Origin: Elusimicrobiaceae bacterium
GTDB lineage: Bacteria; Elusimicrobiota; Elusimicrobia; Elusimicrobiales; Elusimicrobiaceae
NCBI GenBank assembly: GCA_017525025.1
Contig: JAFXUJ010000014.1
Location: forward strand, 186,001-250,000
DNA: 64,000 nucleotides
Reading direction: 5' to 3'
Program-made: the position numbers and the translations under genes
Shown: positions 5,627 to 54,704 of the stretch, one piece after another
How positions within the stretch are numbered: the stretch's first letter is position 1
Layout of the letters: every line of letters begins with the position of its first letter
The notes under the pieces: model-generated
The model's input: the letters and a program-made list of their open reading frames with translations, nothing else
Told to the model about the DNA's origin: nothing
Databases searched by the model: none

Positions 5627-6667
5627 TTAGAATTGTTTTAAAATACGCAAATCGTTTTCATAAAACGTGCGGATATCTTTGATGTTTAGCATCATCATAG
5701 CCAAACGTTCTACTCCCATTCCAAACGCATAGCCGCTAAACTCTTCCGGATCAATGCCGCAATTTTTAAGCACGTTGGGATGGACGACACCGGCACCTAA
5801 CATTTCAATCCAACCGCTTCCTTTGCATACGTTGCAACCTTTCCCCTGGCAAAATACGCATTTCACATCCACTTCCACGCTGGGTTCCGTAAAAGGGAAA
5901 AAGGACGGGCGGAAACGAATTTCGGCCTTGTTCCCAAACAATCCTTTCATGAACGCGGTAAGATCGCTTTTCAAATCAGCCATACTGACGTTTTTATCCA
6001 CATATAATCCTTCTATTTGGTGGAAAACAGGGCTATGGGTAGCATCCAAACTGTCGTTTCTAAATACGCGGCCCGGTGCCATAATACGCAGCGGCGGTTT
6101 ATGTTTTTCCATATACCGGCTTTGTACATTAGAGGTGTGCGTACGCAATACAAGCGGAGTTTTGCCATCTACAAAAAAAGTATCTTGGGCATCCCGCGCC
6201 GGGTGGTGAAGCGGAATATTTAACAAATCAAAGTTATGTTTCTCATCTTCTACCCAAGGTCCTTCGGCCCACTCAAAACCGAGGCGCGCCAAAATATCGG
6301 TCATACGGTCTTGTGCAACCGCTAAAGGATGACGATGCCCTTGTGCCACGGGATAGCCGGGCAAAGATAAATCTATATCGGTTTTATTTAATTCTTCATT
6401 GATCGCCTTGGCGGCTAACGTTTGCGTTTTTTCATCCAGGGCAGCCGTCAACTCCGCTTTTAAGGCATTCCCCAGCGGTCCGGCTGTTTTTTTATCTTCA
6501 ATAGAAAAATCTTTCAGGCCCTTTAACAACTCGGTTAAGGCCCCTTTGCGGCCCAGGGCAGCCACCCGTAATTCTTCTACGGCGGCCAAATCATTTACCT
6601 GGGAAATTTTTGTTTTGTATTCTTGCGCAATGGTTTCGCAAGCGGTTTTGAATTCAGCAATCGTCAT
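5627..6667 (-). CDS. pheS: Phenylalanine-tRNA ligase alpha subunit
   Basis: The 346-residue class II synthetase subunit shows the conserved blocks NFDLLNIPLHHPARDAQDTF, LRTHTSNVQSRYM, VFRNDSLDATHSPVFHQIEG (motif 2) and GYAFGMGVERLAMM (motif 3). A four-cysteine insert (CVFCQGKGCNVCKGSGW) matches a form common in many bacteria. The N-terminal coiled coil that binds tRNA spans about residues 1-90. It is the first gene of pheS-pheT-coiled-coil. No Shine-Dalgarno site precedes the ATG; a TATAAT box lies six bases upstream, suggesting a leaderless message. Confidence 0.98.
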   Translation of the reverse strand: MTIAEFKTACETIAQEYKTKISQVNDLAAVEELRVAALGRKGALTELLKGLKDFSIEDKKTAGPLGNALKAELTAALDEKTQTLAAKAINEELNKTDIDLSLPGYPVAQGHRHPLAVAQDRMTDILARLGFEWAEGPWVEDEKHNFDLLNIPLHHPARDAQDTFFVDGKTPLVLRTHTSNVQSRYMEKHKPPLRIMAPGRVFRNDSLDATHSPVFHQIEGLYVDKNVSMADLKSDLTAFMKGLFGNKAEIRFRPSFFPFTEPSVEVDVKCVFCQGKGCNVCKGSGWIEMLGAGVVHPNVLKNCGIDPEEFSGYAFGMGVERLAMMMLNIKDIRTFYENDLRILKQF

Positions 6668-6673
6668 AATATT

Positions 6674-6679
6674 ATTATA
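6674..6679 (-). promoter_or_regulatory. -10 box of pheS, placed for a leaderless mRNA
   Basis: A perfect TATAAT on the minus strand is followed by only six bases (AATATT) before the pheS ATG at 6667-6665. A start site seven bases after the box would fall on the A of ATG. No purine-rich ribosome site lies in between. Confidence 0.6.
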
Positions 6680-24981: not shown

Positions 24982-27537
24982 ATGAAAATTCATTCGTTTA
25001 ATGTGCAACCGCACCTGCCGGAAAATATTAAATTTTTGGAAGAACTCGCCAATGATATGTGGTTTACGTGGAATTGGCAGGCTATCTTGCTTTTTGTGCA
25101 AGTAGATCCCAAATTATGGGTAAGTGCCAAACGCAACCCCAAATGGTTTTTGGGCAGCATTCCGCAAAAACGTTTTGAAGAACTCAGCCAAGACCAAAAC
25201 TTCGTCAATAATTTAAACCAAGTCAAAGAAGCCTATTATAACTACAAGAAAAATTCTCACACTTGGTATAACGACCACAAACACGAAAACGGACAACTTC
25301 TAACCGCTTATTTTTCCATGGAATACGGCATCGGGGAAGGATTACCGATTTATTCCGGCGGGTTGGGTATGTTGGCCGGAGATCATATCAAATCCGCCAG
25401 TGATTTGGGCATGCCGATTATCGGCGTGGGGCTATTTTACAAACAAGGTTATGTACAACAAGTACTCAACCGCGAAGGTTGGCAAAATGAAGAATACCCG
25501 GATAACGATTGGGCACACATGCCGGTTGAACGGGTGCTGGATAAAAACGGCAAAGACATCGTGGTAGATATTCCGCTGGCCGGCGAAAACGTAAAAGCAT
25601 GCGTGTGGCGGGTACCGGTAGGACGCACTTCCCTGTACTTGCTGGACACCAACTTGCAAGAAAATACACCGGCCCAACGCGCCATTACTGAAAAACTTTA
25701 CGGCGGCGACCGCGAAAACCGCATCCGCCAGGAAGTAGTGCTCGGTATCGGGGGCGTTAAAGCATTAACGGCTATGGGCATTCATCCTACCGTTTATCAC
25801 ATCAACGAAGGCCACAGTGCATTCCTCTTGTTCCAACGCATTATTGATATCATGCAAGAGAAAAAGCTTTCCTTCGCTCAGGCGCGCGAAATCGTGTGGG
25901 CCTCTTCCGTATTTACCACCCATACTCCGGTTATCGCCGGCAACGAGCATTTTGACCCTGTTTTAGTACGCAAATACATGCAACATTATGCAGACGAAAT
26001 GCATATTTCTTGGGACGAATTCTTAGCTTTGGGCAAAGAAACTCCCACCTCTTCTACGTATTGTATGACGGTGGTAGCGTTGCGCTTGTCGGCCTATGCC
26101 AACGGCGTGGCCAAATTGCATGGAGCCGTCAGCCGCGAAATGTGGCACAATTTGTGGCCGGAACTCCCCATTAGCGAAGTTCCCGTTACCAGTATTACAA
26201 ACGGAATTCATAGTTCTTCTTGGATTTCCCATGAACTCAATGATTTACTGCGCCGGTACCTTTTTGACAATAATCAATACGGCGAAATTGATCCTTCCGA
26301 AGAACAACCTTGGACCAAATTGGATGCTATCCCCAATGCGGAATTGTGGAATGTGCATAATACCCGCAAAAATAAACTCATCAACATGGTACAACGCCGG
26401 TTAAAACGTCAATTAACCCGCCAAGGGTTTGATATCATGACGGTCAAAAAGAGCAGCAAAGTTTTACAACCCGATGTGCTGACCATCGGTTTTGCCCGCC
26501 GGTTTGCTACTTACAAACGGGCCACGCTCTTATTTAAAGATTTGAATCGCTTAGACAAAATTGTTAACAACCCGCAACGCCCGGTACAGTTTGTATTCGC
26601 CGGCAAGGCGCACCCGGCCGATACCGCCGGAAAGGAGTTTATTAAATTGATTGTAAGCCTTACTCAAAATGATCCGCGCTTTAAAGGGAAAATCGTTTTC
26701 GTGGAAGATTACAACATGAATACCGCTCGTTATATGGTGCAAGGGGTGGACGTATGGCTCAATAACCCCATTCGCCCGATGGAAGCCAGCGGGACGAGCG
26801 GAATGAAAGCCGCTCTCAACGGAGCATTAGCCCTTTCTGTATTGGACGGTTGGTGGGATGAAGTCGGACCGTGTGATTTCGGTTGGTCTATCGGTGGGCC
26901 GGAAAATTACAAAACCGAAGCCGAACGCGACGCCGTGGAAGCGGAATCTTTGTACAACCTCATTGAACAAGAAATTGCGCCCACCTATTACGCCAAAGAT
27001 GATAAAGGAATTTCTGCCGCGTGGATCACGCTTATGAAAACCTCTATCAAAAAAATCGCCCCCGTGTTTAACACAAACCGGATGGTAAAGGAATACTACG
27101 AACGCTTTTATATCCCGGCCCATAACTACGGCCAAGTATTACAAGAACCCGGTAAAGCTGAGTCCGTGGCTACTTGGCGGCAGAAAATTGCCGAAAACTG
27201 GTACCGAGTCAGCATTACAGACGTTACACCTATCCCGGATACCGCTATTTCTATGGGGGACAAAGTTCTCTTTAAAGCCCGTGTCAATTTAGGCGGCCTA
27301 ACTCCCGAGGATGTACAGGTGGAACTCTATTTAGGCCAACGCGGCAACCGCGGAGATATCATCAAAGAAGATACCATCGCGATGGCGTGCACCGGGCAAA
27401 CGGACGGGGCTTATACGTATGAGGTTTCCATGGCTCCCTTAAATAGCGGACGGCAAGATTATGCCTTGCGTATTTTGCCTGCTAACAAAGATATTCCCAA
27501 CGTATTAACGCCCTTATTCATTCGTTGGGAAGAATAG
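24982..27537 (+). CDS. glgP: Alpha-glucan (glycogen) phosphorylase
   Basis: This 851-residue protein is the GlgP form with an N-terminal DUF3417 segment (LEELANDMWFTWNWQAI). It also has AYFSMEYGIGEGLPIYSGGL, HINEGHSAFL, TTHTPVIAGNEHF, FARRFATYKRA and the pyridoxal-phosphate lysine in EASGTSGMKAALNGAL (Lys about 609). It releases glucose-1-phosphate from glycogen or maltodextrin. No other glycogen genes adjoin it. A 14-bp hairpin lies just past the stop. AAGGAG precedes the ATG. Confidence 0.96.
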   Translation: MKIHSFNVQPHLPENIKFLEELANDMWFTWNWQAILLFVQVDPKLWVSAKRNPKWFLGSIPQKRFEELSQDQNFVNNLNQVKEAYYNYKKNSHTWYNDHKHENGQLLTAYFSMEYGIGEGLPIYSGGLGMLAGDHIKSASDLGMPIIGVGLFYKQGYVQQVLNREGWQNEEYPDNDWAHMPVERVLDKNGKDIVVDIPLAGENVKACVWRVPVGRTSLYLLDTNLQENTPAQRAITEKLYGGDRENRIRQEVVLGIGGVKALTAMGIHPTVYHINEGHSAFLLFQRIIDIMQEKKLSFAQAREIVWASSVFTTHTPVIAGNEHFDPVLVRKYMQHYADEMHISWDEFLALGKETPTSSTYCMTVVALRLSAYANGVAKLHGAVSREMWHNLWPELPISEVPVTSITNGIHSSSWISHELNDLLRRYLFDNNQYGEIDPSEEQPWTKLDAIPNAELWNVHNTRKNKLINMVQRRLKRQLTRQGFDIMTVKKSSKVLQPDVLTIGFARRFATYKRATLLFKDLNRLDKIVNNPQRPVQFVFAGKAHPADTAGKEFIKLIVSLTQNDPRFKGKIVFVEDYNMNTARYMVQGVDVWLNNPIRPMEASGTSGMKAALNGALALSVLDGWWDEVGPCDFGWSIGGPENYKTEAERDAVEAESLYNLIEQEIAPTYYAKDDKGISAAWITLMKTSIKKIAPVFNTNRMVKEYYERFYIPAHNYGQVLQEPGKAESVATWRQKIAENWYRVSITDVTPIPDTAISMGDKVLFKARVNLGGLTPEDVQVELYLGQRGNRGDIIKEDTIAMACTGQTDGAYTYEVSMAPLNSGRQDYALRILPANKDIPNVLTPLFIRWEE

Positions 27538-27565
27538 GGTATTTTGCTGCAAACGGTCCCAAATA

Positions 27566-27599
27566 ACAACGCACAAAATGAACTAATTTTGTGCGTTGT
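27566..27599 (+). other. 14-bp perfect hairpin after glgP
   Basis: ACAACGCACAAAAT (27566-27579) pairs without mismatch to ATTTTGTGCGTTGT (27586-27599) around a six-base loop. No T tract follows, so it is not a textbook intrinsic terminator. It could protect the glgP 3' end from exonucleases or assist a factor-dependent stop. Confidence 0.6.
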
Positions 27600-27628
27600 G
27601 CGTAAAATATCACGCGTAAAAATTATTG

Positions 27629-27634
27629 TATAAA
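27629..27634 (+). promoter_or_regulatory. Putative -10 box of trmL (leaderless arrangement)
   Basis: TATAAA is followed by seven bases (TTGTATT) before the trmL ATG. No ribosome-binding sequence is present upstream of that ATG, so the transcript probably begins at or next to the start codon. Confidence 0.5.
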
Positions 27635-27641
27635 TTGTATT

Positions 27642-28103
27642 ATGCTCAACATCGTTTTAGTAAACCCGGAAATCCCCTTTAACACCGGCAACATTGGCCG
27701 TTCTTGTGTGGCTACCGGCACACGGTTGCACCTGGTAGGAAAGCTCGGTTTTATTATTGCTTCTAAAGAAATTCGCCGATCGGGCTTGGATTATTGGCCC
27801 AACCTGGATTACAAACGCCATGAAACGTGGGAAAGTTTTTTGGAAACGGAAAAACCAACCGAAGAAAAAATGTTCTTTCTTTCCACAAAAGGGAAAAAGG
27901 CATATTGGGACGCCGCCTTCCCGCCGGACGGATATTTAATTTTCGGTGCGGAATCATGTGGGCTGCCCAAAGATTTTTATACTCGCTATGCCCACCGCTT
28001 GTTTACAATCCCTATGACGGGCCCGGTGCGCTCTTTAAATTTATCTTCCTCTGCAGCCATTGTACTATTTGAAGCATTGCGACAAAACCGTTCCACTAAA
28101 TAA
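27642..28103 (+). CDS. trmL: tRNA (cytidine/uridine-34 2'-O)-methyltransferase
   Basis: The 153-residue SPOUT enzyme matches TrmL in length and motifs: the N-terminal VLVNPEIPFNTGNIGRSC, the central LIFGAESCGLP, and the knot-forming IPMTGPVRSLNLSSSAAIVL. It methylates the ribose of nucleotide 34 in certain leucine tRNAs using SAM. It is monocistronic between the glgP hairpin and a terminator, with no Shine-Dalgarno sequence. Confidence 0.95.
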   Translation: MLNIVLVNPEIPFNTGNIGRSCVATGTRLHLVGKLGFIIASKEIRRSGLDYWPNLDYKRHETWESFLETEKPTEEKMFFLSTKGKKAYWDAAFPPDGYLIFGAESCGLPKDFYTRYAHRLFTIPMTGPVRSLNLSSSAAIVLFEALRQNRSTK

Positions 28104-29902: not shown

Positions 29903-29974
29903 GACCTTTTTTCACTTTATTCTGGGTCTTTTGGCCCTTGTGTCTCTCCGTCTGAAAACGCTACAGTATAAGTA

Positions 29975-31159
29975 ATGAAATATTTTGAAAAGCTTTTACT
30001 TTTATTTTTTGTGTTCAATTTGTTTACGCCTTTGTATGCACAATTGGAATTAGGCCCGGCGGCAAAACTAGTCCGCAAGGGAAAACTCCTTCCCCGGCCG
30101 GGCGTTCCCTATTTATCACATCGTGTCAATGCTGATTTTTACCAACGCATGACGGATCAAGTTTCCAGGGCCGCATCGTTCCCAACTGTAGACTTAAAGC
30201 AAGGCCATGCTTTCCGTTCTACTTTCCAATTACAACATACCGATAGCCCCTTCGCTCTAACGGGTTCCGGTTTTGCTATTGATTTACTGGACGATGGAAA
30301 TGTGTGGGGGGTAACGGCCGGACATGTTATGCGAAGAATTGCCCACTACAAAAAACACCGAAAACCACACATCCGGGTGACAACAGGGCCTGACTCTTTT
30401 ATTATTGCCCCAATAAAAAATTTTTATATTGGGAATCCGGAAAGCATGGACATTGCTCTTTTTGAAATTCCGAAAGAGGTTCTGCCCTATGTAACCGTGT
30501 TGCACCCCGCCAAGCAGGCACCCGCCGTAGGGCAAGAAGTTACTATTCGGGGATTCTTTGAGGAACACGCCCAACCGTTTACCTTGTCACATCAAAAGAT
30601 TTTGTCCGCAACACCTCTTAGATTATTCCTACAAAAGACACCTGTAGAAGATATGCGGGGATTTTGCGGCTCGCCGGGATTTATAAATGACCGCGTTTCC
30701 ATGGTATATATTGGGTTTGACAGTGCACGGACGATGGTCTATTACGATTGGTTCAACAAATTGCCCCCCAAGGCTAAATTTCCCATGTCCAATTTGCACT
30801 ATGCTATCCCTATTGACGTGGCAAAATCAATGGCAAAATCTATTAAAGAAAATGGCACTACCGAGGAAAATGCAATCATGATGAAAGTTTTGGGGCATCC
30901 CGTTGCGGTCTTACACCCTAACGAATCCATTGTCTCTATTGAACAACTTAGAAATGGGGAAATAATTGCCAAAGAGGACATTTATAGGCACATTGCCGTT
31001 AACCCCGAACACTTAGATTTATTCTTCAATCTACAGGAAAATGACGTCCTGCGCATTTCGCTTGATAATTTCTCTATGCAACACCCGTATCCCCCCGTAT
31101 CTATGGTGTACGAAGTAAACGTATCCACCGGGCAAGTAACCAAAATTCCGGTTCCATAA
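29975..31159 (+). CDS. Secreted chymotrypsin-fold peptidase-like protein with Cys at the nucleophile position
   Basis: A 394-residue protein with a signal peptide (cleavage likely after LFTPLYA, residue 22). The core from about 80 to 280 looks like a trypsin-like double barrel: GSGFAIDLLDDGNVWGVTAGH (His117) matches the active-site His block, SMDIALFEIP (Asp159) the Asp block, and MRGFCGSPGF the GDSGGP block, with Cys231 where serine is expected. HYAIPIDVAKSM resembles the closing strand. The last 110 residues are an unrecognised domain. No ribosome site is seen; TACAGT at 29962 sits seven bases upstream. It may be an active thiol peptidase or an inactive relative. Confidence 0.7.
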   Translation: MKYFEKLLLLFFVFNLFTPLYAQLELGPAAKLVRKGKLLPRPGVPYLSHRVNADFYQRMTDQVSRAASFPTVDLKQGHAFRSTFQLQHTDSPFALTGSGFAIDLLDDGNVWGVTAGHVMRRIAHYKKHRKPHIRVTTGPDSFIIAPIKNFYIGNPESMDIALFEIPKEVLPYVTVLHPAKQAPAVGQEVTIRGFFEEHAQPFTLSHQKILSATPLRLFLQKTPVEDMRGFCGSPGFINDRVSMVYIGFDSARTMVYYDWFNKLPPKAKFPMSNLHYAIPIDVAKSMAKSIKENGTTEENAIMMKVLGHPVAVLHPNESIVSIEQLRNGEIIAKEDIYRHIAVNPEHLDLFFNLQENDVLRISLDNFSMQHPYPPVSMVYEVNVSTGQVTKIPVP

Positions 31160-33965: not shown

Positions 33966-33976
33966 TTTGGTAAAAT
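33966..33976 (+). promoter_or_regulatory. Extended -10 of msrC, leaderless arrangement
   Basis: TTTGGTAAAAT is followed by six bases (ACTGCT) and then the msrC ATG at 33983, so the predicted start of transcription falls on the start codon. No ribosome site is present. Confidence 0.65.
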
Positions 33977-33982
33977 ACTGCT

Positions 33983-34459
33983 ATGACTAAAATTGAATTA
34001 TATGCCCAACTTTTGCCTCAAATAACTTCCCTTTTACAGGGAGAAACGGACCCGGTAGCCAATATGGCTAACTTGGCAGCCGTGCTTTACCATAATTTGC
34101 AGCAAATCAACTGGGCCGGGTTTTATGTGCGGCGCGAGGATGAACTGGTGTTAGGGCCCTTCCAAGGAAAACCGGCTTGCGTGCGGCTAAAACGCAGACA
34201 CGGAGTGTGCTGGGCCGCTGTGGAAAAGCGGGAAACCCTCATCGTGCCGGATGTGCACACGTTTGCGGGGCATATTGCGTGCGATAGCGCTTCACAAAGT
34301 GAAATTGTCGTCCCGATTTTGAAAGGAACAGAAGTGTGGGGTGTATTGGATATAGACTCCCCGGTGAAAGCGCGGTTTGATGAAACGGATCAAGCGTTTT
34401 TGGAACAAACGGTAAATATATTTGTGACGGCTACGTTTGCACGCTCAAAACAAATTTGA
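33983..34459 (+). CDS. msrC: Free methionine-(R)-sulfoxide reductase (GAF domain)
   Basis: The 158-residue GAF-domain enzyme has all three family cysteines in context: QGKPACVRL, HGVCWAA and HIACDSASQSEIVVP. INWAGFYV and GVLDIDSP also match fRMsr. It reduces free methionine-R-sulfoxide in the cytoplasm using thioredoxin-type reductants. Family members usually read RGVCG where this one reads HGVCW, a small departure next to the catalytic Cys. It is followed directly by the tRNA-Phe promoter, whose motif overlaps its stop codon. Confidence 0.94.
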   Translation: MTKIELYAQLLPQITSLLQGETDPVANMANLAAVLYHNLQQINWAGFYVRREDELVLGPFQGKPACVRLKRRHGVCWAAVEKRETLIVPDVHTFAGHIACDSASQSEIVVPILKGTEVWGVLDIDSPVKARFDETDQAFLEQTVNIFVTATFARSKQI

Positions 34460-47351: not shown

Positions 47352-47362
47352 ATTGATATAAT
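47352..47362 (+). promoter_or_regulatory. Extended -10 of the YgjP-like gene, leaderless arrangement
   Basis: ATTGATATAAT (TATAAT at 47357-47362) is followed by six bases and the ATG at 47369. The predicted transcript begins on the start codon and no ribosome site is present. Confidence 0.66.
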
Positions 47363-47368
47363 ACAAGT

Positions 47369-48037
47369 ATGGCAGATACACAAAGCGTTGTCAGTGATGT
47401 GAAATTGTTTTTAGAACGGCTTAAAAAGGAAATGCCGGAGATTTTCGGCCCTACCGAAAAAGCCGGCACTACGGTTAACACCGAAACGTCCGCCCCTACT
47501 GAAAACAAAGTCCTCTATAACGGGGATTTATTTGAGGCCCGTGTTTACCTTACCCCGGATCAAGAAGAAGGGGTGGCGTTTGACGGTCAAGTATTTCATG
47601 TATATTTGCAGAACAAAGAAAGTAATCCTTCCGCGCTGGTAACCCAATGGCTACGGGATAAAGCGGCCGAAGTGTTACCGCAAAAAACAAAAGAATGGGC
47701 GGAAAAAATAGGCGTGGAATACAACAACGTAGTGTTGAAGGACCAACGCACGCTGTGGGCCAGTTGCTCGGGCAAAAAAAATATCAACTATTCCTACCGC
47801 ATTATTAAAATGCCGCGCGTAGTACAAGATTATTTGGTAATACACGAACTGTGCCACTTAAAATTTATGAATCACGGCGCGGAATATTGGGAATTGGTTG
47901 CCCAGTTCAGCCCTGACTATAAACTCCACCGCCGTTGGCTTAACGAACACAAAGACGCTGTTTTTGAAGAAGTAAAACTAACCATTTCTGCCCAAGACTC
48001 GGCTTCTATCCCAACGGAATCAACTCCGGGAAATTAA
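47369..48037 (+). CDS. YgjP-like (DUF45/M48-type) metallopeptidase-domain protein
   Basis: The 222-residue protein has the YgjP/WLM-like core in its C-terminal half: RTLWASCSGKKNINYSYRI, then VIHELCHLKFMNHGAEYWELV with the HExxH zinc motif (HELCH) and a downstream His in NHGAEYW. The N-terminal 100 residues are variable and acidic. There is no signal peptide. The cytoplasmic function is unknown; many relatives are found beside restriction genes, but not here. Confidence 0.85.
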   Translation: MADTQSVVSDVKLFLERLKKEMPEIFGPTEKAGTTVNTETSAPTENKVLYNGDLFEARVYLTPDQEEGVAFDGQVFHVYLQNKESNPSALVTQWLRDKAAEVLPQKTKEWAEKIGVEYNNVVLKDQRTLWASCSGKKNINYSYRIIKMPRVVQDYLVIHELCHLKFMNHGAEYWELVAQFSPDYKLHRRWLNEHKDAVFEEVKLTISAQDSASIPTESTPGN

Positions 48038-54005: not shown

Positions 54006-54704
54006 TTAAATTAAATGCAATTCGCCTTGCGAATCTTTCCAATAAAAACCTTGCCGTATAAACATCATGTCTTCCGGCAAACAGCTCCCGCCTTGAAAGG
54101 GGACCTCCTCCCCCAACCAAGCGGCCACCACCCATTGCGGAGGCGTCCATTTACCATCTATACCGGCTAATGTTAATTCTATTTCTTCCGGAGAAAGGGT
54201 CTTGGCTTCCCATACAAAAGGTGTTATATCTTGTTGACACACCGTTCCGTTTTCAGCCCGTAAAACAACAAAAAGGTCCCCTTTACCGGCCCAATCTTCT
54301 ATCTTCCGCCCGGCTGAAATATATGGGGAAAAATCCCCTTTCACCCGGTACCTGACCGCGGCTGCCAGGTTCTGCACGGAAGGCAACGGATAGGGCACCC
54401 TGTCCACTTGTAACAACTCCAACCCCTTCGGGGCGGCTTGTTGTAACGCCTGGCGGACACCTTCCTCGCTACAATGTTCCCGCAGATAAATGTCCAGATA
54501 CTCGCGCTCGGCCCGCTGTTCTTGTGCGGGCGCCGGACCGTAGGCAAGCCGTGGCCAATTTTTGTTGACCTTCGCCGGCTCGTACGGCAACCCTGAGTCA
54601 AGCACCATTTTTCTTACCGCGTTAAAAACGTTTCTATTTTCCGCTTGATTTTCCATCCAGCGGAACACTATACGCATTTTATAAATTTTTGGCGTATCTT
54701 TCAT
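54006..54704 (-). CDS. DUF2344 (TIGR03936-type, radical-SAM-associated) protein
   Basis: From the ATG at 54704, five bases after the rodA stop, the product is 232 residues. KMRIVFRWMENQAENRNVFNA and RLAYGPAPAQEQRAEREYLDIYL follow the pattern of DUF2344, which usually sits next to, or fused to, a B12-binding radical SAM protein and just before rng. Here rng follows directly but no radical SAM gene is present. A longer frame into rodA is rejected. Function unknown, probably RNA- or ribosome-related. Confidence 0.75.
   Translation of the reverse strand: MKDTPKIYKMRIVFRWMENQAENRNVFNAVRKMVLDSGLPYEPAKVNKNWPRLAYGPAPAQEQRAEREYLDIYLREHCSEEGVRQALQQAAPKGLELLQVDRVPYPLPSVQNLAAAVRYRVKGDFSPYISAGRKIEDWAGKGDLFVVLRAENGTVCQQDITPFVWEAKTLSPEEIELTLAGIDGKWTPPQWVVAAWLGEEVPFQGGSCLPEDMMFIRQGFYWKDSQGELHLI

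What the first reader, a model, noticed from the sequence alone, without database searches (positions are those of the whole stretch)
47352..47371. Several genes appear to be transcribed as leaderless mRNAs
In four genes a good -10 box lies six or seven bases before the ATG and no ribosome-binding sequence is present: pheS (TATAAT 6679-6674, ATG 6667), trmL (TATAAA 27629-27634, ATG 27642), msrC (TAAAAT 33971-33976, ATG 33983) and the YgjP-like gene (TATAAT 47357-47362, ATG 47369). The secreted peptidase-like gene at 29975 may be a fifth. A start site seven bases past the box falls on the start codon. Other genes here have clear GGAGG-type sites, so the organism would mix both modes. Seen in sequence: spacing and lack of Shine-Dalgarno. 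Inferred: transcript starts.
Basis: partly seen in the sequence, partly recalled or inferred. Interest (0 to 1): 0.62.

Follow-up and report, generated by a model that had tools for sequence, protein, structure and literature searches.

The report
Leaderless genes in a gut Elusimicrobium
In this gut bacterium about 7 to 8% of genes seem to be copied into messenger RNA starting exactly at their start codon, with no ribosome-binding leader; the phenomenon is known from other bacteria, and here it is shown by sequence statistics, not by experiment, for a little-studied lineage.

Summary
The host is a gut Elusimicrobiaceae bacterium. In a 464-kb sample (386 genes), a TATAAT-like box ends exactly 6 bases before the start in 29 of 168 genes without Shine-Dalgarno (SD), against about 1.6 expected per position (P about 1e-27). 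Gaps 5 and 7 are near background. A congener gives 25/150; two more distant families of the class (GC 60% and 67%) also peak at gap 6; one genome of another class does not. Gap-6 genes are mostly operon-first and have T before the ATG (47/53 against 61%). The box is kept next to the start in pheS (58/59 loci, gaps 5-10), ygjP (16/16) and msrC (14/14) while upstream DNA diverges. Best explanation: sigma-70 transcription from -10 boxes without a detectable -35, starting on the A of ATG, then leaderless translation. Transcript ends are inferred. The mechanism is known; the lineage looks new, though earlier surveys may have included it.

The parts
47357..47362 (+). -10 box TATAAT of ygjP, gap 6 to ATG 47369; preceded by TG (47354-47355), an extended -10
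   Evidence: box at gap 6 in 16 of 16 genus loci (this one included) while the DNA further upstream differs
47369..48037 (+). YgjP-like metallopeptidase-domain gene, predicted leaderless; its A is the predicted transcript start
   Evidence: Pfam PF01863 E 2.4e-40; homology starts at residue 1 in congeners
6674..6679 (-). -10 box TATAAT of pheS, gap 6 to ATG 6667
   Evidence: a box at gap 5-10 in 58 of 59 relatives
5627..6667 (-). pheS, phenylalanyl-tRNA synthetase alpha chain, predicted leaderless
   Evidence: Pfam PF01409 E 1.1e-100
33971..33976 (+). -10 box TAAAAT of msrC, gap 6 to ATG 33983; preceded by TG
   Evidence: 14 of 14 genus loci (this one included) at gap 5-7, 12 of them at gap 6
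33983..34459 (+).
   Evidence: Pfam GAF PF01590 E 1.7e-11
   Evidence: No SD; 14 of 20 genus loci, this one included, have a box at gap 6 or 7; Pfam PF02417
27629..27634 (+). TATAAA at gap 7 before trmL (ATG 27642): present, but not supported as a conserved leaderless promoter
   Evidence: 0 of 17 relatives keep a box at gap 5-7
29962..29967 (+). TACAGT at gap 7 before the gene at 29975: undecided
   Evidence: Two mismatches to TATAAT; two paralogs in the same genome have TACAAT at gap 7 (L216, L224)

Best explanation
pheS, ygjP and msrC, and roughly 7-8% of all genes in this genome, are transcribed from sigma-70-type promoters whose -10 box ends 6 bases before the start codon. RNA polymerase then starts on the A of ATG (or within a few bases of it), and ribosomes initiate on the 5'-terminal AUG without Shine-Dalgarno pairing. 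The promoters often carry a TG motif before the -10 box (extended -10), an A/T-rich stretch just upstream of that, and no detectable -35 box. Shown: the box, its fixed spacing, its genome-wide excess, its conservation, the lack of SD and the operon-first position. Inferred: the transcript starts and the mode of translation.
For: Sharp peak at gap 6 in no-SD genes: 29/168 in this genome, 25/150 in congener G015, 9/168 in G034 (another family, 60% GC), 10/164 in G114 (more distant family, 67% GC). A profile trained on one genome finds the same peak in the other (27 and 25 genes at gap 6 at threshold 8). Genome-wide exact TATAAT-N6-ATG exceeds TATAAT-N9-ATG in 30 of 30 genus genomes, 13 of 13 family, 14 of 14 order. 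The base before ATG is T in 47/53 gap-6 genes against 393/648 others, as expected for a pyrimidine-purine initiator. Gap-6 genes are operon-first-like 25/29 against 157/349, and only 1/29 lies within 20 bases of a same-strand upstream gene against 148/349. The box stays next to the start in orthologs of pheS, ygjP and msrC while the surrounding DNA diverges. In one pheS clade (loci L068-L080) TAAAAT lies at gap 9-10, which by the same 6-base rule gives a leader of only 3-4 bases (read by eye).
Against: No RNA data. Starts were called from codon usage, not proteomics. Across orthologs the gap is not perfectly fixed (pheS 5-10), so some transcripts may have leaders of 1-4 bases. Individual genes gain and lose the pattern: of 10 ortholog pairs where one member is gap-6, only 2 are gap-6 in both; some of these mismatches are gap 7 or mis-called starts. 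A second upstream promoter for any gene cannot be excluded.
Confidence: 0.88

Rival explanations
1. Very short leaders: transcripts start 1-5 bases before AUG rather than exactly on it, and are translated in a leaderless-like way.
For: pheS gaps range 5-10 across relatives, with one clade predicted to have 3-4-base leaders; a small number of no-SD genes sit at gaps 7-9.
Against: The peak is a single base wide at gap 6 in two genomes, and T before the ATG is enriched, which points to the A of ATG as +1.
Confidence: 0.08
2. The A/T-rich sequence before these starts is a translation signal (unstructured or protein S1-type site), not a promoter, and the real promoters lie further upstream.
For: Non-SD genes in many bacteria have A/T-rich upstream regions that could be S1 sites (PMC5397173).
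Against: The signal is a TATAAT-like hexamer with a one-base-wide spacing, often with an extended -10 TG; it is depleted from operon-internal genes, as a promoter should be and a translation signal need not be; it persists at 60-67% GC.
Confidence: 0.03
3. Chance: A/T-rich intergenic DNA often contains TATAAT near ATG.
For: Single cases such as trmL look like this (not conserved).
Against: Gap-6 excess P about 1e-27; 52 against 17 for the reversed pattern genome-wide.
Confidence: 0.01

Closest known systems
Bacterial leaderless ('TA-led') genes of Zheng et al. 2011 (PMC3160421)
   Same: TANNNT -10-like signal about 10-12 bases before the start, no SD, minority of genes; the averages reported for several bacterial groups are in the same range (a few to about 20%).
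   Different: Elusimicrobia is not named among the positive groups in the text, although the table's 'Other Bacteria' row (8 of 20 genomes) could include it. The spacing here is a one-base-wide peak.
Leaderless transcripts of Mycobacterium (PMC4633059)
   Same: 5'-terminal start codon, SD and leaderless genes mixed in one genome.
   Different: There nearly a quarter of transcripts, shown by RNA-seq and ribosome profiling, with ATG or GTG; here about 7-8% of genes, predicted only, and almost only ATG (31 of 32).
GeneMarkS-2 leaderless bacterial class (summarised in PMC9581028)
   Same: Genomes predicted to mix leaderless and SD starts; 21.6% of bacterial species.
   Different: The original paper is not held here, so whether Elusimicrobiota genomes were assigned could not be checked.

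Membership tests
Leaderless genes | -10 promoter box placed so that transcription starts at the start codon | tested here: met
   One-base-wide peak at gap 6
Leaderless genes | No Shine-Dalgarno sequence | tested here: met
   29 of the 32 gap-6 genes have no SD match; in SD genes gap 6 is at background
Leaderless genes | First gene of its transcription unit | tested here: met
   25/29 operon-first-like against 157/349
Leaderless genes | Start codon AUG (or GUG) | tested here: met
   31 of 32 ATG, 1 TTG
Leaderless genes | Mapped transcript 5' end at the start codon | not testable with these tools
   No RNA data
Leaderless genes | Ribosome initiation on the 5'-terminal AUG | not testable with these tools
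   Needs ribosome profiling or a reporter
Leaderless genes (trmL only) | Conserved -10 box next to the start | tested here: not met
   0 of 17 relatives

The most novel reading that the evidence does not exclude
Leaderless initiation from -35-less, often extended -10 promoters is an ancestral, standing feature of the class that contains this family, used for single housekeeping genes (for example pheS, smpB, mutS, peptide deformylase, tgt, mnmE), and is weak or absent in other classes of the phylum.
Probability: 0.4. Interest if true: 0.42.

Novelty: new member of a known kind. Interest (0 to 1): 0.33.

Why it matters
It gives a sequence-only case that a barely studied gut phylum mixes SD and leaderless starts, names which genes are affected, and lets start codons be annotated better (some starts called in these genomes lie inside or beside -10 boxes). 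It also supplies a ready set of conserved targets, pheS first, for testing when leaderless starts are kept or lost in evolution.

Tried and rejected
TATAAT-N{0,30}-ATG over the whole genome: only the first matches are listed, so no full histogram from it. N{5,7} counts in relatives: diluted, because the signal sits at 6. -35 boxes: no excess of TTGACA-like matches at 15-19 spacing in gap-6 genes (mean best 2.90 against 2.86 shuffled), and little in SD genes. trmL as a leaderless gene: rejected as conserved. Genome G060 of another class: gap 6 in 5/205 no-SD genes against 2.9 expected, P 0.16, so no peak; its low GC (34%) lowers power. Literature on Elusimicrobiota with 'leaderless': two papers, neither on this.

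Full report
What the window is. The window is 64 kb of a 1.55-Mb, 99%-complete genome of 17 contigs. Its pheS protein is up to 95% identical to those of many uncultured Elusimicrobium / Elusimicrobiaceae genomes from rumen and gut. GC is 46%.

Checking the observation. The gaps between box and ATG are 6 (pheS), 7 (trmL), 6 (msrC) and 6 (ygjP). None has a Shine-Dalgarno (SD) match. With a -10 box ending at -7, as in the textbook sigma-70 promoter (established knowledge), a gap of 6 puts +1 on the A of ATG.

Is it more than chance? I took 20 spread-out 20-kb stretches of the same genome, chosen by contig position and not by motif, plus the window, and called genes by codon usage with starts chosen without looking upstream. 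Of 386 usable genes, 218 have an SD match and 168 do not. In the 168, a TANNNT box with at most one mismatch to TATAAT ends 6 bases before the start in 29 genes; the mean at other positions is 1.57 (P 1e-27). Gap 5 has 2 and gap 7 has 4, both near background. In SD genes there is no peak there; their boxes are spread over gaps of about 15-45, as expected for genes with leaders. Over the whole genome, TATAAT-N6-ATG occurs 52 times against 17 for the reversed pattern, while TATAAT-N9-ATG occurs 12 times against 19.

Independent marks of transcription starts. The gap-6 genes have T before ATG in 47 of 53 cases (two genomes pooled) against 393 of 648 other ATG genes; they are operon-first-like in 25/29 against 157/349; only 1/29 sits within 20 bases of a same-strand upstream gene, against 148/349. 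Their promoters show A/T-rich -19 to -15 and often TG before the box (15 of 29 in this genome, 9 of 25 in G015; 17 of 62 and 31 of 82 in SD genes), and no -35 signal.

Relatives. Congener G015 gives 25/150 at gap 6, the order-level genome G034 (60% GC) 9/168, the class-level genome G114 (67% GC) 10/164; G060, of another class of the phylum and 34% GC, shows no peak, 5/205 against 2.9. Counting only exact TATAAT in 150 genomes, N6 exceeds N9 by 3.4-fold in the genus, 2.3 in the rest of the family, 2.0 in the rest of the order, 1.9 in the rest of the class and 1.2 elsewhere.

Orthologs of the named genes. pheS: 58 of 59 loci have a box at gap 5-10 (31 at gap 6), while the DNA above it differs; in one clade TAAAAT sits at gap 9-10, which predicts a 3-4-base leader. 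ygjP: 16/16 at gap 6. msrC: 14/14 at 5-7, 12 at 6. trmL: none of 17 relatives has a box at gap 5-7, and most have neither box nor SD. The gene at 29975 has a poor hexamer, but two paralogs in this genome have TACAAT at gap 7, so it stays open.

What the genes are. Of the 26 sampled gap-6 genes outside the window, 24 have a Pfam match above that model's own cut-off; they include SmpB, MutS, peptide deformylase, queuine tRNA-ribosyltransferase, MnmE, an rRNA methyltransferase, DnaJ, TatD and a lipid A acyltransferase. They look mostly like single housekeeping genes; no enrichment test was made.

What is known. Leaderless genes with a TANNNT signal about 10-12 bases before the start are well described in bacteria (PMC3160421) and shown by experiment in mycobacteria (PMC4633059). 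One survey predicts them in 21.6% of bacterial species (PMC9581028). I found no paper that reports them in Elusimicrobiota, but only open-licence papers were searchable and unnamed rows of earlier surveys may include the phylum. So this is a well-supported new lineage of a known mechanism, not a new mechanism.

Noticed in passing
G000 C15, about 54375-54432 (L351 1875-1932); L352 1826-1883: Two divergent genes (a HAD/KdsC-like protein and a small lipoprotein-like protein) both begin with a TATAAT-N6-ATG, their start codons about 50 bases apart; the same pair, in the opposite orientation, is in congener G011, and a third genome has the same layout with other genes. Protein names read by eye, not tested.
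   Followed up: partly
L115:8280 (minus) and L115:8341 (plus): Another divergent pair, TatD-like and SmpB, both with a gap-6 box, 60 bases between the genes.
   Followed up: no
window 27537-27642 and trmL loci L161-L178: trmL lacks both SD and a nearby -10 box in nearly all relatives; how its start is recognised is unexplained.
   Followed up: no
genome-wide, no-SD genes: About 36% of sampled genes have neither SD nor a gap-6 box; of the 139 counted in this genome, 52 follow a same-strand gene within 20 bases.
   Followed up: no
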